Shown here: positions 1 to 11,171 of the stretch, in pieces
How the letters are laid out: each line of letters opens with the position of its first letter
Position numbering within the stretch: position 1 is the first letter of the stretch
NCBI GenBank assembly: GCA_021154885.1
Contig: JAJKHS010000100.1
Span: 1 to 64,000, forward strand
Reading direction: 5' to 3'
Length of the DNA: 64,000 bases
Source: Thermoanaerobaculum sp.
GTDB lineage: Bacteria; Acidobacteriota; Thermoanaerobaculia; Multivoradales; UBA5704
Notes under the pieces: model-generated
The model's input: the letters and a program-made list of their open reading frames with translations, nothing else
Database searches by the model: none
What the model was told of the DNA's origin: nothing
Translations under genes and position numbers: made by a program

Positions 1-3000
1 CGTTACAGCGGACAGGACGATCTCGCGGTGGGCTCACCCGTCGCCGGACGCACACACCGCGAGCTCGAACCGCTGATCGGGTTCTTCGTCAACACGCTGG
101 TTTTACGAGGAGACCTGCGAGGAGACCTGGCGGGCGCCCCCACCTTCCGCGAGCTGCTCGGCCGTGTGCGCGAGACCGCCCTGGCCGCCTATCTGCACCA
201 GGACGTGCCGTTCGAAAAGCTGGTCGAGGAGCTGGCCCCCGAAAGGAGCCTCGCCTATGCCCCCCTGTTCCAGGTGATGCTCGTGCTGCAGAACGCTCCC
301 GTCGCAAGCCTGGAGATCGAGAGCCTGCGCCTGCGGCCGGTGAACGTGGAAGGTACGACGGCGAAGTTCGATCTCACCTTGAGCCTCGAAGAGCACGGCG
401 ACGGGCTCCTCGGCACGGTCGAGCACGCCACCGATCTCTACGACGCCGCGACGGTCGACCGCCTGTTCGCGGGCTTCGAGCGACTGCTCGCCGGCCTGGT
501 CGAAGCGCCGGAGCGGCGCGCCGGCGAGGTGGGCCTGCTCAGCGCCGCGGAAGCTCTCCAGCTTCGCGCCTGGAACGCGACCGCCGCCGCCTACCCTCTC
601 GACCGCCCGCTCCATGCCTGGATCGAAGAGCAGGTTGGCCGTTCTCCCGATGCCGTGGCCATTACTTTCGAGACGGAGGAGCTGACCTACGGCGAGCTCG
701 ATCGGCGGGCCAACCGTCTGGCGCGCCGGCTCCAGGCCCTTGGCTGTGGCCCGGAGAGCCGCGTCGGCGTGCTCCTGGAGCGCTCCTGCGAGCTGCTCGT
801 CGCCCTGCTCGGCATCCTCAAGGCGGGCGCGGCCTATGCCCCCCTGGACCCCGACCATCCCGCCGGCCGCCTCGCCTTCCAGGATCGCGATGCCCGCCTG
901 CGGCTGATCCTGACCCGCGCCGGCCTGGCCGATCGCCTGCCGGGCGCCGAGGATCGCTTCCTGTTCCTGGAGCACGGCGAACCGGCGGCCGGAGATCTCG
1001 GTGATCTCGACGAGGGTCCGCTCTCGGTGCCCGTCGATCCCGATCATCCGGCCTACGTGCTCTACACCTCCGGCTCCACGGGCAGGCCCAAGGGCGCGGT
1101 GATCTCCCACCGGGCCATCGTCAACCGGCTCCTCTGGATGCAGGAGGCGCTGCAGCTTTCCGCCGCCGACCGGGTGCTCCAGAAGACCCCGTTCAGCTTC
1201 GACGTCTCGGTCTGGGAGCTGTTCTGGCCGCTGATGACCGGCGCCCGCCTGGTGGTGGCCCGACCCGGTGGCCACCGCGACAACGCCTACCTGGCGCGGC
1301 TCATCGCCGGGCAGGGGATCACGGTCCTGCACTTCGTCCCCTCCATGCTGCAGCTCTTCCTGGAGGAGCCCGGGGCAGGGGAGTGCCGCACGCTGCGCGA
1401 CGTGGTGTGCAGCGGCGAGGCGCTGCCCGCCGCGCTGGCCCGGCGGTTCGCCGCCCGCCTCGGCCACGCCCAGCTGCACAACCTCTACGGCCCCACCGAG
1501 GCCGCGGTGGACGTCACCTCCTGGGTCTGTGAGACCGGCGAGAGCTACCGCGGCGGCGTCCCCATCGGCCGGCCGATCGCCAACACCCGCATCCACCTGC
1601 TCGACCGCAACCTTCAGCCGGTGCCAGTGGGCGTGCCGGGCGAGCTGTTCATCGCCGGCGTCAACCTGGCGCGCGGTTACGTCGAGCGCCCCGATCTGAC
1701 GGCCGAGCGCTTCCTGCCGGACCCCGAGGGAGGGGAGCCCGGCGGGCGCGTCTACCGTACCGGCGACCTGGCGCGGTGGCGGACCGACGGGGCGATCGAG
1801 TACCTGGGCCGCCTGGACCACCAGGTCAAGATCCGCGGCGTGCGCATCGAGTTGGGGGAGATCGAGGCGGCGCTGCTGGCCCTGCCCGGCGTGCGCGAGG
1901 CGGTGGTGTTGGTGCGTGGGGATCAATCCCGCGAGGATCGCTCCGAAAAGCGTCTGATCGCCTATGTGGTGGGGGACGCTTCGGCCGGCGCGCTGCGCTC
2001 GGGCCTGCGGGAGCGTCTGCCGGAGCCCATGGTGCCCGCCGCCTTCGTGACGCTCGCGGCGTTGCCCCTCACGGCCAACGGCAAGGTGGACAGGAAAGCG
2101 TTATCTGCTCCGGAGGCGGCTCCGGAGCAGCCCGGCGCCGCGTCCGGGTACGCGGCGCCCCGCACCCGCGAGGAGGAGCTCCTGGCGACGGTCTGGGCGC
2201 AGGCTTTGCGCCTGCCGCGGGTGGGGGTCAACGACAACTTCTTCGAGCTCGGCGGCGATTCGATCCTCTCCGTCCAGATCGTGGCCCGGGCGCGCCAGGC
2301 CGGCCTGCGCTTCACCATGCGGCAGATCTTCGAGCACCAGACGGTGGCGGCGCTCGCCCGCCATGCCACATTCACAGATGCCGCTGGTGTCCGTGCCGAG
2401 CAGGGACCGGTGGCAGGCGAGGTGCCACTCACCCCGATTCAGCGCTGGTTCTTCGCGCAGGGCTTTGCGGACCCCCACCACTTCAACCAGGCCCTCCTGC
2501 TGGAGTCGCGAGAGCCCCTCGACCCCGCCGTCCTGGAACGCGCCATGGCCGCCATCGTGGAGCACCACGACGCCCTGCGGATGCGGTTCGCTCTCCAGCC
2601 GGGCGGCTGGCGGCAGGAGAACGCGCCGGCCGAGCCGGTGGCGCCCTTCCACCAGGTGGACCTTTCGGGCCTGCCGGCGCCTCGCCGGCGCCAAGCCTTC
2701 GAGCGGGCGGCCGCGGCTCTCCAGGCGGGCTTCGACCTGTCGGCGGGACCTCTGGCCCGCCTCTGCCTGTTCAATGGGCAGCCGGACCGGCTGCTCTGGG
2801 TCACCCACCACCTAGTGGTGGACGGGGTCTCCTGGCGCGTGCTGCTCGAAGACCTGGAGGGGGCGTACCGCCGGGCCGCGCGCGGGCTGCGCCCCACCTT
2901 GCCGCCCAAGACCACCTCGTTCCAAGAGTGGGCTCGCCGATTGACTGCGCATGCCGGGCATGCCGGCTCGGAGGCGTTGGCCCGCGAGCTGGATTACTGG

Positions 3001-4686
3001 CGCGAGACCGCCCGGGCTCCCGTCCCCCGCCTGCCCGTCGACTTCCCCTCTGCCGCCGATCTGGTCGGCGACGAAGCCACGGTCTCCTTCGAGCTCACTG
3101 CCGAAGAAACCGCGGACCTGCTCCAGACCCTGCCGTCGGTGTACCACAACCGCATCGACGACGCGCTGCTCAGCGCCCTGGTGCGGGCCCTGGCGGGCTG
3201 GACCGGCTCGCCGCGGCTGCGGGTGGACCTGGAGGGGCATGGCCGCGAGCCCATATCGGGCGATGTCGACGTCTCGCGCACCGTGGGCTGGTTCACCTCC
3301 CTGTACCCGGTCGTCCTGGAGGAGGGGGACGCCGGTCCCGGCGACGCCCTGGTGAGCGCCAGGGAGCGGTTGCGCGCCGTGCCGGGACGCGGTCTCGGCT
3401 ACGGTCTGTTGCGCCTGGAAGCGGCTCCGGCGGCCGAGATCCTGTTCAACTACCTGGGCCAATATCTGGGTCAAGCCGACGCCGCCTCCGAGGAGAGCTC
3501 TCTTTTCCGGGCTTCCACGGTCTCCGCCGGCCCCAGCCGGAGCCCGCGCGCCCGCCGCACCCACCCGTTGGAAATCGTCGGCATGGTGGCCGAGGGCCGG
3601 CTCCGGATCACCCTGACCTACGGCTCGCGGACGCATCGCCGGGAGACCGCGGAGCGACTGGCCGCGGCCTATGCCGGCGCGCTGCGGCAACTGATCCAGC
3701 ACGGCCGGGAAAGCGAGAAGACCGTCGCCGCGCCGGCCCCGCGCCTCGAGGAGGAGGCTGGCACCCCCTGGTCGCCGCTGGTGCCGATCCAGCCCCTCGG
3801 GGCGCGGACGCCGCTCTTCTTCGTCCATGCGCTCGGGGGAGAGGTCCTCGGCTACTACCAACTCGCCCGACAGCTCGGCACAGACCAGCCGGTCTACGGC
3901 CTCCAGGCGCGCCCCCTCGATGGGAAGGCCGGGCAGGCCGAAGCGCCGCAGGTTACGATCGAACAGGCGGCGGCCGAGTACGTCGATGCCGTGCGAAGCT
4001 TTCAGCCCGTTGGCCCCTACCTTCTGGCCGGGTACTCTTTTGGCGGGGTCGTCGCGTTCGAGATGGCGCGGCAGCTCAACCGTGCCGGAGAGGAGGTGGC
4101 GCTGCTCGCCCTCCTGGATCAACCGGTCTCTCCGGGCGACGAAGCCGCGGAAGTCGACACCGCGGCCGTCATCGCCGGCATGCTGCAGCATCAGGCCCGC
4201 GGCGAGGGGCGTACGCTGGAGCTCGATGCGGAAGCGCTGCGCGGTCTTCCCCTCGACGGCCAGCTCGCACGGGGCCTGGAGATCCTCGGCGGCCTGGAGG
4301 CGCTCGGACCGGGTTTCGACATCCCGCTGCTGCGCGATCTGGCCCTGGGGTGGAGCTCCAGGGCGACGGCCGTCGAACGCTACAGGGTTTCCACCTATCC
4401 GGGAAGGATCACCCTGTTGCGGGCGAGCAGCGTCGATCCGGTCGCCCTCCAGGAAGCGACTCCGCAACGACGGCAGATTTTCGAGGACCCCACCCTGGGC
4501 TGGGGTACCGTCGCAGCGGGCGGCGTGGAGGTCCACACCGTCCCCGGCAACCACCAGACGATCATCGCAGCGCCCCACGTGGAGACCCTCGCCGAGATCT
4601 TGGCAACGTGCATCGCGCGGGCCGAGCGAGGGCCGGGGCGAACAGCTTGCCTCATGGGGCCGGCAGCTCAACCCGTGGAGGTTTGA
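1..4686 (+). CDS. Terminal NRPS, C(partial)-A(Ser)-PCP-E-TE; 5' end outside window
   Basis: The reading frame is open from base 1, so the gene begins upstream; 1561 residues are visible. Domains in order: the C-terminal half of a condensation domain (about 1-190, with the VNTLVLR and DVPFEKLVEEL blocks); an adenylation domain (about 203-700; YTSGSTGRPKG near 354, YRTGDL near 585, NGKVD near 695); a carrier protein with GGDS, pantetheine Ser754; an epimerisation domain (PLTPIQRWFF near 808, HHLVVDG near 935, NYLGQ later); and a type I thioesterase with G-Y-S-F-G-G, nucleophile Ser1346, and a C-terminal GNH histidine. The pocket code reads DVWHVSLVDK, the serine family (EntF is DVWHFSLVDK). The module should activate L-Ser, epimerise it on the carrier, and release the chain by hydrolysis or cyclisation. 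The GGDS carrier variant fits an E domain directly downstream. The stop lies 704 nt before the end of the convergent transporter gene. Domain calls are secure; Ser is well supported; the release mode is unknown. Confidence 0.95.
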   Translation, partial: RYSGQDDLAVGSPVAGRTHRELEPLIGFFVNTLVLRGDLRGDLAGAPTFRELLGRVRETALAAYLHQDVPFEKLVEELAPERSLAYAPLFQVMLVLQNAPVASLEIESLRLRPVNVEGTTAKFDLTLSLEEHGDGLLGTVEHATDLYDAATVDRLFAGFERLLAGLVEAPERRAGEVGLLSAAEALQLRAWNATAAAYPLDRPLHAWIEEQVGRSPDAVAITFETEELTYGELDRRANRLARRLQALGCGPESRVGVLLERSCELLVALLGILKAGAAYAPLDPDHPAGRLAFQDRDARLRLILTRAGLADRLPGAEDRFLFLEHGEPAAGDLGDLDEGPLSVPVDPDHPAYVLYTSGSTGRPKGAVISHRAIVNRLLWMQEALQLSAADRVLQKTPFSFDVSVWELFWPLMTGARLVVARPGGHRDNAYLARLIAGQGITVLHFVPSMLQLFLEEPGAGECRTLRDVVCSGEALPAALARRFAARLGHAQLHNLYGPTEAAVDVTSWVCETGESYRGGVPIGRPIANTRIHLLDRNLQPVPVGVPGELFIAGVNLARGYVERPDLTAERFLPDPEGGEPGGRVYRTGDLARWRTDGAIEYLGRLDHQVKIRGVRIELGEIEAALLALPGVREAVVLVRGDQSREDRSEKRLIAYVVGDASAGALRSGLRERLPEPMVPAAFVTLAALPLTANGKVDRKALSAPEAAPEQPGAASGYAAPRTREEELLATVWAQALRLPRVGVNDNFFELGGDSILSVQIVARARQAGLRFTMRQIFEHQTVAALARHATFTDAAGVRAEQGPVAGEVPLTPIQRWFFAQGFADPHHFNQALLLESREPLDPAVLERAMAAIVEHHDALRMRFALQPGGWRQENAPAEPVAPFHQVDLSGLPAPRRRQAFERAAAALQAGFDLSAGPLARLCLFNGQPDRLLWVTHHLVVDGVSWRVLLEDLEGAYRRAARGLRPTLPPKTTSFQEWARRLTAHAGHAGSEALARELDYWRETARAPVPRLPVDFPSAADLVGDEATVSFELTAEETADLLQTLPSVYHNRIDDALLSALVRALAGWTGSPRLRVDLEGHGREPISGDVDVSRTVGWFTSLYPVVLEEGDAGPGDALVSARERLRAVPGRGLGYGLLRLEAAPAAEILFNYLGQYLGQADAASEESSLFRASTVSAGPSRSPRARRTHPLEIVGMVAEGRLRITLTYGSRTHRRETAERLAAAYAGALRQLIQHGRESEKTVAAPAPRLEEEAGTPWSPLVPIQPLGARTPLFFVHALGGEVLGYYQLARQLGTDQPVYGLQARPLDGKAGQAEAPQVTIEQAAAEYVDAVRSFQPVGPYLLAGYSFGGVVAFEMARQLNRAGEEVALLALLDQPVSPGDEAAEVDTAAVIAGMLQHQARGEGRTLELDAEALRGLPLDGQLARGLEILGGLEALGPGFDIPLLRDLALGWSSRATAVERYRVSTYPGRITLLRASSVDPVALQEATPQRRQIFEDPTLGWGTVAAGGVEVHTVPGNHQTIIAAPHVETLAEILATCIARAERGPGRTACLMGPAAQPVEV

Positions 4687-5133
4687 ACATTTCAGTCCCG
4701 GGTCGAGAGGTTGAACCCGCCGGTTGGACTGTCCGCCCGCCCGGATCTCCTGTTTTGTCGCGCAGACCGGCATCTGGGGTGCGCGTTGCGGCGGGTTCGT
4801 GTTGCAAGCGGCGGTTTGTGATGCAGCCGCAGAGCGGGTCCTCCAAAGCACGAGAGCAACCCGGAACGGATTGGTGGGACCTGGTTACTAGACTAGTCTG
4901 CCGCGAATTGGAAGCTCTCGCGGCGGACAAGCCGGTGGCGGTCCACGAGATCCGGCCGCTGGCCGAACCCACTGGCCGAAGAGCGTCGGAGTCCTGCCTG
5001 ATCGCACGCTCCAGGGCCGTTCGCAGGTCCTCGCTATCGACGCTGCCGCCGGCTCCGGCGCGAGTGAAGTCGCGAAAGATTCGACGAAGTTTCGGGACTT
5101 CCCTTGAATCAGGGTGATTGAGTAGGTTGCCCA

Positions 5134-5153
5134 AGTCACACTCCAGTCACACT
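5134..5153 (+). repeat. Direct repeat pair AGTCACACT, 11-bp period, left of tRNA end
   Basis: Two identical copies of AGTCACACT (5134-5142 and 5145-5153) are separated by CC, an offset of one helical turn. A related AGTCACC occurs at 5236-5242. The sequence resembles the arm-type integrase sites of phage lambda (consensus close to AAGTCACTAT). Being a recombinase arm site is inference. Confidence 0.55.
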
Positions 5154-5286
5154 GCGAGGTGAAAACCAGTGGTAACCGGCGGTACTGGGTGACAGTCCAG
5201 GATCGAGCTAAGTGCTTGACCTGTTGTACGTTGAGAGTCACCGGCTGTCATTGATTGACAGGGCTGGGCCTGTTTCCTAAACTCTT

Positions 5287-5314
5287 GGGGGTTCGAGTCC
5301 TCCCAGCCGCACCA
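5287..5314 (+). other. tRNA 3'-end fragment, probable recombinase attachment core
   Basis: The stretch reads as a normal tRNA 3' end. The T-stem GGGGG (5287-5291) pairs with CCTCC (5299-5303) with one G-U, around the T-loop TTCGAGT. The acceptor 3' strand CAGCCGC (5304-5310), discriminator A and encoded CCA follow. Upstream, CCGGCTG at 5241-5247 could pair with the acceptor at six of seven positions and would give a 74-nt unit, and TTCCTAA at 5274-5280 looks like an anticodon loop (CCT, Arg). However, the anticodon stem pairs at only two of five positions, the variable loop would be one base, and there is no proper D-arm. It is therefore not called a functional tRNA. Remnants of this kind are typical of integration sites in tRNA genes. 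Confidence 0.55.
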
Positions 5315-5323
5315 CTTTTTAAG

Positions 5324-5343
5324 ATCAACACTGTATCAACACT
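5324..5343 (+). repeat. Direct repeat pair ATCAACACT, 11-bp period, right of tRNA end
   Basis: Two identical copies of ATCAACACT (5324-5332 and 5335-5343) are separated by GT. The spacing matches the repeat pair on the other side of the tRNA-like core, but the sequence differs. The right pair starts 10 bases after the CCA end. Confidence 0.55.
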
Positions 5344-5389
5344 TATCTCTAGAGCATCGGAGCAGAAATGGGGCCGAAAAGCGGCGGGC

Positions 5390-7075
5390 TCAGGTAAACG
5401 GCTGAGAGATCATCAATCCCTTGTGCTCTGTGACAGAGCGATCGTACTCGACCTGCCCATAGTTCAGTTTGACGACGCGGTCGGCGACGTGGAAGTAATG
5501 GTCGTCGTGGCTGATGACGAAGACGGTCTTGCCTCGGCGCCGCAGCTCCGGGAGAAGCTCCAGGTAAAAGACCTGCTTGAAGGTCGGGTCCTGATCGGCC
5601 GCCCATTCATCGAAGACGTAGATCGAGCGATCCTCCAGGTAGGCGGTCAGCAGGGCCAGGCGCTTGCGCTGCCCTTGCGACAGGTCGAGCGTGGAGAACC
5701 GCCCTTGCTCCACCCGCACCTTGCGGTCCAGGCGCAGCCGCTCGAGGTAGCGAAGGGCTTCCTGGTCCAGCTTGGCGCTCTCCAGACCGAGCAGGTTCTC
5801 AAACAGGAAGAAGTCGGAGAAGACGACGGAGAAACGCTCGCGGTAGCTCTCCCGGTTGTGATCGGTGATCGCCTCGCCTGCGAAGCGGATCTCTCCCGCC
5901 TCCGGCGTGTAGAGGCCGATCAGGATCTTGGCCAGGGTGGTCTTGCCGCTGCCGTTGCCGCCGATCATGAAGACCAGCTCGCCGGGCCGGAATGTCAGGT
6001 CGACTGGTCCGAGCAGGAAGCTCTCGTCATTTTCCTGCCGGTAGCTGTGGGCCACGCCGTCCAGCTCCAGGAGGTCCCAGGTGCCCTGCGTGGCAGCCGG
6101 CGCTAGGTCCGGCGCCGGCGCCTCGGCATCCAGCGAGAACCCGAGATCCTCGACGGTCCGGATCGCCACCGTGGCGCGGGAGAGTGCCGGCAGGCTCGTC
6201 AGCAGGACCTCCAACGGGGTCATCATCTGGAACAGAACGATTGTGTAGGCGACCAGGACCTTGCCGTCGACCGGCTGGAACCGGGGGAGGACCAGGATGA
6301 GGAACCCGATCAGCATGAACAGCAGGACTTGCCCCCAGCTCGAGGCCACGGAGAACGCGATCTGACCGGCCCTGTAATCTTTCATCTGGGCCTTCGTGCT
6401 GTGCTCGACGCTCTGCAGGAAGGCCTCCCGCCGGCCGCGGTGCATCTTGAGCTCCTTGGTGCCCTCGACCATGGAGCGGATCTGGCCGAACACTTCGTCC
6501 ATCCATTGGCGCGAGCGTTGGAAGAAGAGGCTCGCCTTGCCTGCCGCCAGACGGTACGAAAGGGCGCCGCCCAGGATGACGACCGCCACCTCCAGGAGCA
6601 ACCGTGTGTCGAGCCAGCCCAGGTAGACGAGAGAGCTCACCACCAGTGTGACGTGCATGAGCAGGATCGGGACCATGGCCGTCGAGTCGGCGATCGTGCC
6701 GATGTCCGTGGTGAGGGTCGCGAGCAGACGCGACGCCCCGACCTGTTCGAGCTGGCGCAGTGGCGCCGAGAGCACCCGGCGGCTCAGCCGCAGCCGCAGG
6801 GCGAGCAGGCTGCTCTGCGACAGGTCCACGAGAAGCACCTGCGAGACGAAACGGCAGGCGGGCAGCACCGCGCAGAGGGCGGCGAAGGCCCAGATCCTGG
6901 CCGGGCCCGAGGACCCCGGACGGCCGATGAGCGAGTTGATCAACGCGATCATCCCGGTCGCCGCCAGGCCGCTCGCCACTCCTCCGATCGCGATGACGGC
7001 GATGCGCAGCCGGGAGTGCCGGATGTCCAATGACAGGCGCCGCAGGAACGAGAGCAGGCGGAGGAGCGAGGCCAT
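5390..7075 (-). CDS. Cyclic-peptide/siderophore ABC exporter, PvdE/SyrD type (fused TMD-NBD)
   Basis: This is a 561-aa half-transporter with six membrane segments followed by one ATPase domain, probably exporting the peptide made by the adjacent synthetases from the cytoplasm. The N-terminal 320 residues hold hydrophobic helices (for example IAVIAIGGVASGLAATGMIAL near the start). The ATPase domain has Walker A GGNGSGKTT near residue 370, the signature LSQGQRKR, and Walker B ending in VFDEWAADQDP near 485. The DEWAADQDP form of Walker B is typical of the cyclic peptide transporter family (PvdE, SyrD), and the length matches. I chose ATG at 7075 (MASLLRLL); a TTG at 7090 would add five residues. 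Neither has a strong ribosome site. The gene faces the NRPS gene at 1-4686 and diverges from the ATP-grasp-like gene at 7294. Confidence 0.92.
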   Translation of the reverse strand: MASLLRLLSFLRRLSLDIRHSRLRIAVIAIGGVASGLAATGMIALINSLIGRPGSSGPARIWAFAALCAVLPACRFVSQVLLVDLSQSSLLALRLRLSRRVLSAPLRQLEQVGASRLLATLTTDIGTIADSTAMVPILLMHVTLVVSSLVYLGWLDTRLLLEVAVVILGGALSYRLAAGKASLFFQRSRQWMDEVFGQIRSMVEGTKELKMHRGRREAFLQSVEHSTKAQMKDYRAGQIAFSVASSWGQVLLFMLIGFLILVLPRFQPVDGKVLVAYTIVLFQMMTPLEVLLTSLPALSRATVAIRTVEDLGFSLDAEAPAPDLAPAATQGTWDLLELDGVAHSYRQENDESFLLGPVDLTFRPGELVFMIGGNGSGKTTLAKILIGLYTPEAGEIRFAGEAITDHNRESYRERFSVVFSDFFLFENLLGLESAKLDQEALRYLERLRLDRKVRVEQGRFSTLDLSQGQRKRLALLTAYLEDRSIYVFDEWAADQDPTFKQVFYLELLPELRRRGKTVFVISHDDHYFHVADRVVKLNYGQVEYDRSVTEHKGLMISQPFT

Positions 7076-7092
7076 TCGGCAGCCGTCCAAGC

Positions 7093-7176
7093 CTAGACCA
7101 GGGCCTGCTCGCGGGTAACGGGCTCGGCCGTTCTCTTGACAGCCGGGACCTTCGCTTCACTGAAATCGATGGGCAT
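7093..7176 (-). CDS. Possible 27-aa small ORF immediately upstream of the exporter
   Basis: On the reverse strand an ATG at 7176 opens a 27-codon frame that begins MPIDFSEAK, ends REQALV, and stops with TAG at 7093-7095. A good ribosome site (GAAAGG, six bases of spacing) precedes it, better than that of the exporter. The stop lies 17 bases before the exporter ATG (7075) and two bases before its alternative TTG (7090), in a different frame, so translational coupling is possible. The peptide is polar, with no signal peptide and no membrane segment. It could be a leader peptide, a small protein, or chance. The divergent intergenic DNA continues to 7293. It has a TTGACA at 7136-7141 and an AT-rich patch near 7203-7220, but no clear full promoter. 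Confidence 0.33.
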   Translation of the reverse strand: MPIDFSEAKVPAVKRTAEPVTREQALV

Positions 7177-7293
7177 TTATGACCTTTCTGCGCCGACGCA
7201 CAGATTAGAATAACTTATCGTAGCGGACGGGACAGGCCGCCGTCCACCATCTCCGGATATTTCGCTGGCCGGTGCAGGAGGGGAGAGGAGACG

Positions 7294-8721
7294 ATGAGCG
7301 AGTTGACTTCAACCGCGCGGGAGAAGGCTGTGGAGGAGGAGGGTTGGTCCGAGGAGCTGCAGTCCTCTCATCGCAGCATCTCGCAACAGGATTTCCGTTT
7401 CCGCGAGTTCGCGCGAACCTGTCCCGAGCTCCTCGAGCGGTCAAAGTTCTCGGCGTTGGATCAAAAAAGGCATCTTTTGAAATATGCGATCCAGGCCTGG
7501 CCGACCTTCGTCGGCCGGGAGAAGCTCGCCGAGTTCCAGCGGGTGAGCGCCGGCATCAACCGCCTGATCCGGCAGATCCCGGCGCGGATCTTCCGGAATG
7601 ATCCCGCGAAGTTCAGTGACTTTTATGAGATTGGATCATCCGTGCTGGCCGAGATCGTGCTCTCAGAGCCCAGTGGTGTCGAGACCGTCCTATCGCGGGG
7701 GGATTTCATCGAGACCCGCAGCGGGTTCAAGTGCATAGAGTTCAACTTCACTCCCAGCCTGGGAGGATGGGAGACCTCCGTCCTCGTCGGTATGCATCTG
7801 GAGGTCCCCGCCACCGCCGAGTTCATCCGTTCGTCCGGCATCGCGGTCAAGTATACGAACACGATGCAGAAGTTTTTTTTTCATGTCATCGATGAAGCAG
7901 CTCGGAAGGGGCTCTGCCCGGATGGCGAGCTCAACATCGCTCTGGTCGTCGTTCGAGAGAACTCGGCCTACCTGACGCACGCCGCCGCGGAGTACCTGAA
8001 CGCCGAGTACGACTTGGCGAAGCAGGAGTTGCAGGGACGGCTTCGCGGCACTCTGGAGATCTGCCAGTATGGCGCTCTGGTTCCGAGCCGTGACGCACTC
8101 TTTCTGAACCGGCGCAAGATTCACGCCGTGGTCGAGCTCAGCGGCGAGATCACCCCCCCGGGGGTCTACCGTTGTTTCAAGGCCAACAAGCTCGTCCTGC
8201 TGAACGGCCCGCTGTCGCCCATCCTGTCCAACAAGCAGAACATCGCCCTGCTCTCCGAGCACGCGAGCTCTCCGATCTTCAGTGCCGAGGAGCAGGAGCT
8301 CCTCCTCAAGCATATCCCATGGAGCCGGCAAGTGACCGCTCGGGAGGTCGAGTATCTCGGCACGCGCGTTTCCCTGCCGGACCTGCTGGCCCACAGGCGG
8401 GAAGACCTCGTGCTGAAGGAGGTGCGGTCGTACGGTGGGAAGGACGTGATCGTAGGTCGGTTCGCGTCGGCGGAGAAGTGGGAGAAGCAGGCCCGGCTCG
8501 CCCTGGAGAAAGGAGGCTGGATCGTCCAGGAGCACATGGAATCGTTGCCCTACCTCTTCCAGTGCGGCGCCTACGGCTGCGCTCCCCACGATGCGATCTG
8601 GGGACCCTTCTACCTCGGCGACACCTACGGCGGAGCGATCCTGCGGGTGCAGCCCAAGTCGGCCGGTGGACCCGTCAACCTGAGCCTTGCCGCGACCGAG
8701 GGGATCGTCCTCGAAGTGTGA
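7294..8721 (+). CDS. Circularly permuted ATP-grasp-like protein (glutathionylspermidine synthase-like)
   Basis: This 475-aa soluble protein has no signal peptide or membrane segment. The clearest family clue is the C-terminal part. A stretch LVLKEVRSYGGKDVIVG (about 368-384) is followed by WIVQEHMESLPYLF (about 409-422), the lysine/Gly-rich ATP-binding pattern seen in circularly permuted ATP-grasp enzymes and glutathionylspermidine synthase-like proteins. The middle block CIEFNFTPSLGGWE (about 147-160) resembles the E-x-N metal-binding strand of the same fold. Such enzymes form amide bonds through an acyl phosphate, so a peptide-tailoring or amine-coupling role is possible; the substrate is unknown. 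The ATG is preceded by GGGAGAGGAG. The gene is flanked by the divergent exporter and the convergent permease. No close named relative is recognised. Confidence 0.65.
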   Translation: MSELTSTAREKAVEEEGWSEELQSSHRSISQQDFRFREFARTCPELLERSKFSALDQKRHLLKYAIQAWPTFVGREKLAEFQRVSAGINRLIRQIPARIFRNDPAKFSDFYEIGSSVLAEIVLSEPSGVETVLSRGDFIETRSGFKCIEFNFTPSLGGWETSVLVGMHLEVPATAEFIRSSGIAVKYTNTMQKFFFHVIDEAARKGLCPDGELNIALVVVRENSAYLTHAAAEYLNAEYDLAKQELQGRLRGTLEICQYGALVPSRDALFLNRRKIHAVVELSGEITPPGVYRCFKANKLVLLNGPLSPILSNKQNIALLSEHASSPIFSAEEQELLLKHIPWSRQVTAREVEYLGTRVSLPDLLAHRREDLVLKEVRSYGGKDVIVGRFASAEKWEKQARLALEKGGWIVQEHMESLPYLFQCGAYGCAPHDAIWGPFYLGDTYGGAILRVQPKSAGGPVNLSLAATEGIVLEV

Positions 8722-8743
8722 GCCCTTCCTGAAGTGAGGAGGC

Positions 8744-8762
8744 GCCCCCGCGCCGAGGGGGC
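8744..8762. terminator. GC hairpin between convergent genes
   Basis: A six-base-pair stem GCCCCC/GGGGGC closes a seven-base loop, 22 bases after the stop of the ATP-grasp-like gene and 9 bases after the end of the convergent permease. There is no T-run on either strand, so it would be a weak intrinsic terminator, possibly acting in both directions. Confidence 0.45.
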
Positions 8763-8771
8763 ATCGGCGTC

Positions 8772-11171
8772 TCATTCGTAGCGGATGGCGACGAGCGGGT
8801 CGGTCTGCGTGGCGCGCCAGGCGGGTACGAAGGTGGCGAGGAACGCAATGATGAGCAGGAAGCCGGCGGTGAAGACGTAGACGAGGAGGTCCGCCGCCGA
8901 AACTCCGAACAGCAGGCTGGCGATGACGCGGGAGGCGGCCAGGGAGCCGGCGACGCCGATGACGATCCCGATTAGGGTGAGGGTGAGGCCCTGGCCGGAG
9001 ATCAGGCGGAAGATGCTGCTGCGCTGGGCGCCGAGAGCGACCCGCACGCCGATCTCGTTCGTCCTCTCTGACACCGAGTAGGCGAAGATGCCGTAGATGC
9101 CCAGAGCGGCGAGGAGCAGGGCGAGCAGGGCGAAGAGGCTGAGCAGGACGGTCTTCGACCGCGGCTCGGCGATGGCCTGGGCGAGGTGGTCGTCCCAGGT
9201 CGTGAGCTCGTCCAGGGGGAGCTCGGAATCGAGGCCCCAGATCACCTTGCGCATGCTCTCGATATAGGGTCGTGGATCGCCGGAGGTGCGCACCATGTAC
9301 GTCAGGTCGTCGATGTGGTTCTGTGCCAGGGGGGTGTAGACGGAGGGGGTGATGTCTTCCGTGATGCCCCGCTCGCGGACATTGGCGACGATGCCCACCA
9401 CCTCCCAGTCCTGGTCTTTGAAGGTGAAGCGCTTGCCGAGCGCGCTCTGGCCGGGCCAATAGGAGTCGGCCATTTTGCGGTTGACGATGGCCACCGGCGG
9501 GCTGTTTTCGGTATCCGCGGTGGAGAACTTGCGCCCTTGGACGAGGGGGATCTGCATGGTGCCGAAATAGTCGCCGGAGACGATGCGTATGTTGGCAGTG
9601 GGCTCCTCCCCCTTGGGCGGCGTCGGGCGGTCCTTGAAGACGACGGAGCTGACGGTCGCCGGCCACATCAGGGGCGGCTGGTTGATGGCGCCCACCGAGG
9701 TCACGCCGGGCAGTACCGCGGCCCGCTGCTGCACCTCATCGAAGAAGGCGTTCCGTTTGGAGATGGAGTCGTAGCGCGGCGTGCTGGAGGGCAAGGCGAA
9801 GGGCGCCATGACCACATGGCTGGGATTGAAGCCGAGGTCCACCGCCCGCAGGTTCGCAAGGCTGCGCAACAGGAGGGCCGCGGTGATCAGTACCATCATG
9901 GTGAGGGCGACCTCGGCCACCAGCAGGGTCTTTAGGGGGCGCCGGGTTTGGCCGGAGCTCGAGCGTCCGCGGGCCTCCTTGAAAGCGGAGACGAGGTCGA
10001 GGCGGAAGGTCTGCGACACCGGCGCCAGGCCGGCGATGATGCCGGTCACGAGAGAGAGCAGGATGGTGATCAGGAGTACCCGCACGTCGACGGTGATCTC
10101 GTCCTGGCGTGGCACGGTGGAGAGCAGGTCGAGGAGGAACTGCTTTGATACCGAGGAGAGGATCAGGCCCAGGGCGCCGCCGAACAGCGCCAGCAGGACT
10201 CCTTCGATGAGGAACTGCCGGGTGACGTTGGCGCGCGAGGCGCCGAGGGCCAAGCGGAGCGAGACCTCGTGGCTGCGCTGGCTCGCCCGGGCGAGAAGGA
10301 GGCTCGCCACGTTGGCGCAGGCGATGAGCAGCACCAGAGCGACAGTGCCCATGAGGGCGAGGATGCCGGTACGGGTCTTGCCGACGACCACCTCCCGCAG
10401 AGGCACGACATTGACACCCCAGTGGGTGTTGCTGTCCGGGTATTGCTGCTCCAGGCGGGAGGCGATGGCCGAGAGCTCCCGCTGGGCGCTCTCCGTCGTG
10501 GCACCGGGCTTCAGGCGGCCGATGGTGAACAGATAGCGCCAGCGGATCGCCTCCTCCTTGGGAGTGAATGCCACCGGTACCCAGAGTTGGGCCGAGGTCG
10601 GGTAGACGTACCCGGGCGGCATGACACCGATGACCGTGTAGGGATCGCCGTTGAGACTCAGGGCCTTGCCGACGATGGCGGGATCGCCGCCCAGGTATTT
10701 CTTCCAGAAGGAGTGGCGCACCACCACCACCTTCGACTTGTCGGCGGCGTCCTCATCGGGCTGGATGCCGCGCCCCAGAAGGGGCTTCATGTCCATGATC
10801 TTGAAGAAGTCGCTGCTCACCCGGGCGCCGAGTTGGCTCGTGGGGATGCCGTGGCCGGTGATGTTGTAGTACTGGTAACCGGCAGGGCTGAACGCTGCGA
10901 AGACCGAGCTCTGCGCTTTCCAGTCGAGGAAGTCTCCCGGCGACACCATGCTCCTATCGTCGGCCGCCCCTTTCTGATGGTCGTATACCATCACGACACG
11001 ACCCGGATTCGAGACCGGAATGGGCTTCAGCAGCACGGCATTGACGATGCTGAAAATCGCGGTATTGGCACCAATCCCCAAGGCGAGAGCCAGGACTGCG
11101 AACAGGGTGAGGGTTGGCTTCTGGAAGAGCGACCGCAAGGAATGGCGCACGTCTCGCAGCATACCGTCCAT
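8772..11171 (-). CDS. ADOP-type ABC transporter permease (MacB/FtsX family, no ATPase)
   Basis: This 799-aa inner-membrane protein has the duplicated FtsX layout of the acidobacterial orphan permease family. A first helix carries the hallmark GIGANTAIFS (near residues 33-42). It is followed by a long MacB-like periplasmic domain, three helices near 270-390 (GTVALVLLIACANVASLLLARA), a second periplasmic domain (about 440-660), and three helices at the C-terminus. The end VPAWRATQTDPLVAIRYE is typical. There is no nucleotide-binding domain. ADOPs are usually annotated as permeases of unknown cargo; export or envelope stress have been suggested. An AGGAGAGA ribosome site precedes the ATG at 11171. 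The gene diverges from the megasynthase operon, with 211 bases between the two starts. No PadR regulator or partner ATPase is encoded next to it here. Confidence 0.9.
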   Translation of the reverse strand: MDGMLRDVRHSLRSLFQKPTLTLFAVLALALGIGANTAIFSIVNAVLLKPIPVSNPGRVVMVYDHQKGAADDRSMVSPGDFLDWKAQSSVFAAFSPAGYQYYNITGHGIPTSQLGARVSSDFFKIMDMKPLLGRGIQPDEDAADKSKVVVVRHSFWKKYLGGDPAIVGKALSLNGDPYTVIGVMPPGYVYPTSAQLWVPVAFTPKEEAIRWRYLFTIGRLKPGATTESAQRELSAIASRLEQQYPDSNTHWGVNVVPLREVVVGKTRTGILALMGTVALVLLIACANVASLLLARASQRSHEVSLRLALGASRANVTRQFLIEGVLLALFGGALGLILSSVSKQFLLDLLSTVPRQDEITVDVRVLLITILLSLVTGIIAGLAPVSQTFRLDLVSAFKEARGRSSSGQTRRPLKTLLVAEVALTMMVLITAALLLRSLANLRAVDLGFNPSHVVMAPFALPSSTPRYDSISKRNAFFDEVQQRAAVLPGVTSVGAINQPPLMWPATVSSVVFKDRPTPPKGEEPTANIRIVSGDYFGTMQIPLVQGRKFSTADTENSPPVAIVNRKMADSYWPGQSALGKRFTFKDQDWEVVGIVANVRERGITEDITPSVYTPLAQNHIDDLTYMVRTSGDPRPYIESMRKVIWGLDSELPLDELTTWDDHLAQAIAEPRSKTVLLSLFALLALLLAALGIYGIFAYSVSERTNEIGVRVALGAQRSSIFRLISGQGLTLTLIGIVIGVAGSLAASRVIASLLFGVSAADLLVYVFTAGFLLIIAFLATFVPAWRATQTDPLVAIRYE

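What the first reader, a model, noticed from the sequence alone, without database searches (positions are those of the whole stretch)
5134..5343. tRNA 3' end flanked by 11-bp-period direct repeats: candidate integration site
A tRNA-like T-arm, acceptor strand and CCA (5287-5314) is flanked by AGTCACACT x2 on the left and ATCAACACT x2 on the right, each pair offset by one helical turn. An inverted repeat CTGTCA/TGACAG also lies in the interval. This is the expected layout of a tyrosine-integrase core with arm sites. It separates the TE gene from the rest, so the synthetase locus may have been inserted at or rearranged near a tRNA.
Basis: partly seen in the sequence, partly recalled or inferred. 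Interest (0 to 1): 0.6.

Follow-up and report, generated by a model that had tools for sequence, protein, structure and literature searches.

The report
Right end of tRNA-inserted NRPS island
The spot is the far end (attR) of a 44-64 kb block of foreign genes that once spliced itself into an arginine tRNA gene, carrying a peptide-antibiotic-type assembly line and Tc-toxin-like genes; it is a clear but ordinary kind of mobile island, now immobile because its integrase is broken.

Summary
Window 5272-5314 matches the 3' part (anticodon loop to CCA) of the genome's tRNA-Arg(CCT) on contig C108, apart from a 4-nt deletion. Both 11-bp-period repeat pairs are exact. They are 2 of only 4 such 9-mer pairs in 64 kb.

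The AGTCACACT pair behaves as an integrase arm site. Its 84-nt block (5128-5211) has one other copy in the genome, 2.6 kb from that tRNA. The motif abuts an integrase start codon, or flanks tRNA-Arg 3' ends, in viral contigs. The tRNA is followed by an IHF consensus, a degenerate arm pair and a truncated 61-aa integrase start: an attL.

Contig overlaps join C108 to the window's first base. One NRPS frame stays open across every join. The window site is therefore attR of a 44.4-63.6 kb island: Dab transaminase, Tc-like genes, and NRPS(-PKS) ending in the window's thioesterase.

It is a new member of a known kind (tRNA-integrated island), now immobile.

The parts
1..4686 (+). C-terminal part of the island's NRPS (C-A-PCP-C-TE); continues leftward off the contig into C108 through a 98-bp overlap
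   Evidence: 98-bp exact overlap and open frame across the join; Pfam Condensation, AMP-binding, PP-binding, Thioesterase
5128..5211 (+). P-arm region of attR, the right end of the element; only other copy in the genome at C108:36478-36563(-), 91% identical
   Evidence: absent as a block from 58 relatives
5134..5142 (+). arm-type site 1, AGTCACACT
   Evidence: exact repeat, 11-bp period; same pair beside integrase genes and tRNA-Arg 3' ends in viral contigs
5145..5153 (+). arm-type site 2, AGTCACACT
   Evidence: as above
5245..5261 (.). short inverted repeat CTGTCA/TGACAG, not above chance
   Evidence: 27% of shuffled segments contain such a repeat
5272..5314 (+). core: displaced 3' part of tRNA-Arg(CCT), anticodon loop to CCA, with a 4-nt deletion (TCGG)
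   Evidence: alignment to the complete tRNA at C108:39195-39271(-)
5324..5343 (+). ATCAACACT pair right of the core; unassigned (chromosomal flank B', or remnant arm of another element)
   Evidence: exact and unique in the genome
5390..7090 (-). first gene outside the island: cyclic-peptide export ABC transporter (TIGR01194)

Best explanation
The site is attR of a genomic island inserted by a tyrosine integrase into tRNA-Arg(CCT). By the usual mechanism (inferred, not shown here), the integrase bound paired arm-type sites and exchanged strands in the anticodon loop of the tRNA gene. The island carried its own copy of the tRNA 3' end, which kept the tRNA intact at the left border (attL, C108). 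The original 3' end was pushed to the right border, where, free of selection, it lost 4 nt. Shown by sequence: complete tRNA and displaced fragment in the same orientation; arm pairs; integrase start next to attL; contig linkage by overlaps. Inferred: that both borders come from one insertion event, and that the cargo (Dab transaminase, Tc-like genes, NRPS-PKS with thioesterase) travelled with it. The integrase is cut to 61 aa, so the island is now fixed. A second P-arm copy 2.6 kb inside attL suggests that two related elements once sat in tandem.
For: Displaced fragment plus regenerated tRNA-Arg(CCT). attL side: IHF consensus AATCAAGCACTTG 6 nt past CCA, a degenerate 11-bp arm pair (AGTTGCACT/AGTCACAGT), then an integrase N-terminus MATVTKRTAG..., 47% identical to an intact integrase that lies about 100 bp past tRNA-Lys in the same genome. 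The AGTCACACT pair abuts the ATG of a phage integrase in L074/L077 and lies 75-105 bp from tRNA-Arg 3' ends in L075/L076. Assembly graph: the 98-bp and 41-bp overlaps close on C108-C115-C114-C7-C100 only, and the NRPS frame stays open throughout, 2882 aa (direct join) or 9267 aa (all contigs). Same-genome control: an intact 6.9-kb element in tRNA-Arg(ACG) on C107 with attL, P4-like integrase, attR and 11-bp arm pairs. In the relatives examined tRNA-Arg(CCT) lies next to the same upstream genes, and none of the 58 searched carries the P-arm block.
Against: The integrase is truncated, so integration cannot be shown to be self-driven. C108 and the window lie on different contigs, so the linkage is inferred from overlaps. 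The ancestral right flank (TPR-pdp genes) is elsewhere in this genome (C92), so an empty attB could not be reconstructed. The island is not clearly atypical in G+C (60-73% against 66-70%).
Confidence: 0.86

Rival explanations
1. The window site is a P-O-P' junction between two tandem islands. The ATCAACACT pair would be the left arm of a second element, and the 90-kb NRPS-PKS cluster to the right would be a second island at the same tRNA.
For: Exact 11-bp pair ending in ACACT like the other arms; a second P-arm copy inside the left island and a tandem remnant at tRNA-Arg(ACG) on C107 show that accretion happens in this genome; a BGC lies on each side.
Against: No third tRNA-Arg(CCT) fragment in the genome; no integrase among the ORFs listed or called just right of the site; the pair is 10 nt from the core, whereas other P' arms here are about 60 nt away; no IHF consensus.
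Confidence: 0.15
2. The site is a true att relic, but its partner border was not the tRNA on C108, or a later rearrangement moved it, so the NRPS did not arrive with the element.
For: Different contigs; core genes downstream of the tRNA in other families have moved to C92; the two P-arm copies are not identical.
Against: Orientation is consistent and the assembly graph joins exactly these two borders, whichever way the repeat node is resolved; the same arm motif family occurs at both ends.
Confidence: 0.1
3. Chance resemblance: a tRNA-like sequence and random direct repeats.
For: Rfam's tRNA score is below threshold.
Against: 43-nt match at E = 2.4e-12 to a tRNA of the same genome; arm block repeated beside that tRNA; independent viral examples.
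Confidence: 0.01

Closest known systems
tRNA-integrated genomic islands as defined by Islander (PMC4383910)
   Same: Regenerated tRNA gene and displaced 3' fragment mark the two ends; anticodon-centred crossover subsite; same orientation; integrase remnant next to the tRNA.
   Different: Integrase truncated, so the strict Islander filter (intact integrase) fails; ends lie on two contigs joined by overlap.
High Pathogenicity Island (yersiniabactin NRPS-PKS, asn tRNA, P4-like IntB; PMC2801613)
   Same: An NRPS-type cluster carried on an island in a tRNA gene flanked by direct repeats; hot spot with tandem islands and modules.
   Different: tRNA-Arg instead of asn tRNA; different integrase type (the fragment's relatives match phrog_1; no Arm-DNA-bind_3 hit in the intact C86 relative); cargo unrelated (Tc-like genes, NRPS with Dab transaminase).
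P4-like 6.9-kb element in tRNA-Arg(ACG) of the same genome (C107)
   Same: attL/attR layout, 11-bp paired arms, displaced tRNA-Arg 3' fragment, tandem remnant.
   Different: Different arm sequence (GGACCACTGGT) and integrase (Arm-DNA-bind_3); integrase intact and next to attR.

Membership tests
tRNA-integrated genomic island (Islander criteria) | complete tRNA gene plus displaced 3' fragment of the same tRNA | tested here: met
tRNA-integrated genomic island (Islander criteria) | fragment and tRNA on one replicon, same orientation, plausible length | tested here: met
   linked through closed contig overlaps and an open NRPS frame; 44.4-63.6 kb; not proven by long reads
tRNA-integrated genomic island (Islander criteria) | intact tyrosine integrase inside the island | tested here: not met
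   only 61 N-terminal residues remain at C108:38892-39074; the rest was not found
lambda-type attachment site (arm-type sites, core, IHF) | paired arm-type sites on the element side of the core | tested here: met
   AGTCACACT pair 118 nt left of the core in the window; degenerate pair about 60 nt past the tRNA at attL
lambda-type attachment site (arm-type sites, core, IHF) | IHF consensus between core and P' arms | tested here: met
   WATCAANNNNTTR 6 nt past CCA at attL on C108; also in C107 and in relative G005; none in the window, as expected of attR; binding not tested
lambda-type attachment site (arm-type sites, core, IHF) | recombination by the cognate integrase | not testable with these tools
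   needs a recombination assay
integrative and conjugative element | relaxase and conjugation genes | tested here: not met
   gene calls of 100 aa or more over the island, family-scanned, give transaminase, Tc-like genes and NRPS-PKS only; about 740 N-terminal residues of the first NRPS were not scanned

The most novel reading that the evidence does not exclude
tRNA-Arg(CCT) in this genus is a landing strip where whole NRPS/PKS clusters accumulate in tandem: the left NRPS-Tc island and the 90-kb right-hand NRPS-PKS cluster both arrived there through related integrases, with the window site as the junction between them.
Probability: 0.13. Interest if true: 0.55.

Novelty: new member of a known kind. 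Interest (0 to 1): 0.36.

Why it matters
It gives a precise border for a large biosynthetic island in a poorly studied lineage, suggests that one of two adjacent synthetase clusters was acquired as a unit together with Tc-like genes, and corrects cluster boundaries: a genome-mining tool would probably fuse the TE-containing NRPS with the separate cluster to its right. It also links two contigs that the assembler could not join.

Tried and rejected
Complete tRNA in the window: none. Symmetric attP with right-hand arms: not supported. Inverted repeat as a functional site: chance level. Empty-site comparison: other families have TPR-pdp genes right of the tRNA, but this genome keeps those genes on C92 among core genes, so the ancestral right flank could not be recovered. 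Same-genus G001 has NRPS/oxygenase/ATP-grasp-like fragments (read by eye from translations) right of the tRNA, but on a 5-kb contig, too short to compare. Exact arm motif in named genomes: 7 hits in Prevotella, Mediterranea and Sphingomonas, with arm-like repeats but no complete tRNA close by; not followed further. Relatives of the intact C86 integrase in viral contigs: none. Literature search for the arm sequence: only chance text matches.

Full report
What is there. Window 5272-5314 reads GTTTCCTAAACTCTTGG----GGGTTCGAGTCCTCCCAGCCGCACCA and aligns to the 3' part of tRNA-Arg(CCT) (C108:39195-39271, minus strand), from the anticodon loop to CCA, with one 4-nt deletion. It is preceded by AGTCACACT twice (5134, 5145) and followed by ATCAACACT twice (5324, 5335). 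Exact 9-mer pairs with period 11 occur four times in 64 kb; these are two of them. The inverted repeat at 5245-5261 is no more than chance.

Where the partner is. The window starts at base 1 of contig C100. The block 5128-5211 around the AGTCACACT pair has a single other copy in the 8.2-Mb genome, C108:36478-36563, 2.6 kb beyond the 3' end of the complete tRNA. On C108 the tRNA is followed within 6 nt by an IHF consensus, at about 60 nt by a degenerate arm pair (AGTTGCACT/AGTCACAGT), and then by the first 61 codons of an integrase. An intact relative of that integrase (47% identity over the N-terminus) lies about 100 nt past tRNA-Lys on C86 with its own 11-bp pair (CGGGACACT twice) in front of its start codon. 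This is an attL; the window holds the matching attR.

Linkage. The minus strand of C108 runs from the tRNA past a Dab transaminase gene (TIGR02407, itself on the other strand), the second P-arm copy, TcB/C-like and two TcA-like genes, into NRPS genes that run off the contig end. The last 98 bases of that strand equal the first 98 of the window. The same 98-mer ends C7 (reverse strand) and starts C115; a 41-mer joins C115, C114 and C7 and occurs nowhere else. Whichever way this node is resolved, the only outside ends are C108 and C100. Joined either way, a single NRPS frame stays open to the stop codon at window 4686: 2882 aa (direct) or 9267 aa (through all three small contigs, including a PKS module on C114). 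Border to border the island is 44.4 or 63.6 kb, more if C114 is repeated. The tRNA and the window core point the same way, as an island requires.

Independent support for the arm motif. AGTCACACTNNAGTCACACT in viral contigs sits directly before the ATG of a phage integrase (L074/L077; phrog_1, Pfam Phage_integrase) and 75-105 bp from tRNA 3' ends in L075 and L076; by their anticodon loops both are tRNA-Arg (my reading of the sequence). Among 99 genomes searched (the window's own and relatives) the exact pair is found only in the window's own genome; one other genome has a one-mismatch copy.

Mechanism. Following the principle stated for tRNA islands (PMC4383910), the integrase splits the tRNA gene, the island restores it at one end, and the displaced 3' fragment marks the other end; crossover at the anticodon loop is one of the recognised subsites. 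The displaced copy is free to decay, which explains the TCGG deletion. Shown: borders, orientation, arms, integrase remnant, linkage by overlap. Inferred: one insertion event, co-transfer of the cargo, former tandem of two elements (from the second P-arm copy).

Limits. The right flank before insertion could not be checked. In other families the tRNA is followed by TPR and pdp genes, which in this genome lie on C92 between core genes; within the genus the one comparable contig is short and already carries synthetase fragments. The right-hand ATCAACACT pair is unique in the genome and remains unassigned.

Placement. NRPS clusters on tRNA-borne islands are known, the High Pathogenicity Island being the classic case (PMC2801613). 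This is a new member of that kind with an unusual cargo pairing (NRPS plus Tc-like genes); a literature search for the combination returned one Pseudomonas comparative-genomics paper that was not read. It is not a new kind of system.

Noticed in passing
L007 (C107) 3207-10266: Intact 6.9-kb element in tRNA-Arg(ACG): attL, P4-like integrase (8705-10111), attR with displaced tRNA fragment (about 10121-10171), arm pairs GGACCACTGGT; beyond attR a truncated repeat of an island gene, i.e. a tandem remnant.
   Followed up: partly
L054 (C86) 3824-5086: tRNA-Lys(TTT) followed about 100 bp later by an intact tyrosine integrase with a CGGGACACT pair just before its start codon.
   Followed up: partly
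C108:18300-36150 (L011, L006): Three large genes with Tc-toxin-complex domains (SpvB/TcdB_mid; TcA-TcB-binding; ABC_toxin_N) inside the island; annotated only.
   Followed up: partly
L006:7463-8752: EctB-type diaminobutyrate transaminase inside the island, which hints at Dab residues in the NRPS product.
   Followed up: no
window 7294-8721: 475-aa ORF right of the att site with no Pfam or NCBIfam match.
   Followed up: partly
L056 (G001:C236) 1-2548: Same-genus genome: tRNA-Arg(CCT) is followed within about 20 nt by what reads as an NRPS condensation-domain fragment and then oxygenase- and ATP-grasp-like genes (read by eye), so this tRNA may be a recurrent landing site for biosynthetic genes.
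   Followed up: partly
L067 and L071 (Sphingomonas immobilis): Two sites with the same AGTCACACT pair followed by similar 150-bp sequences, possibly attachment sites of a related element.
   Followed up: no
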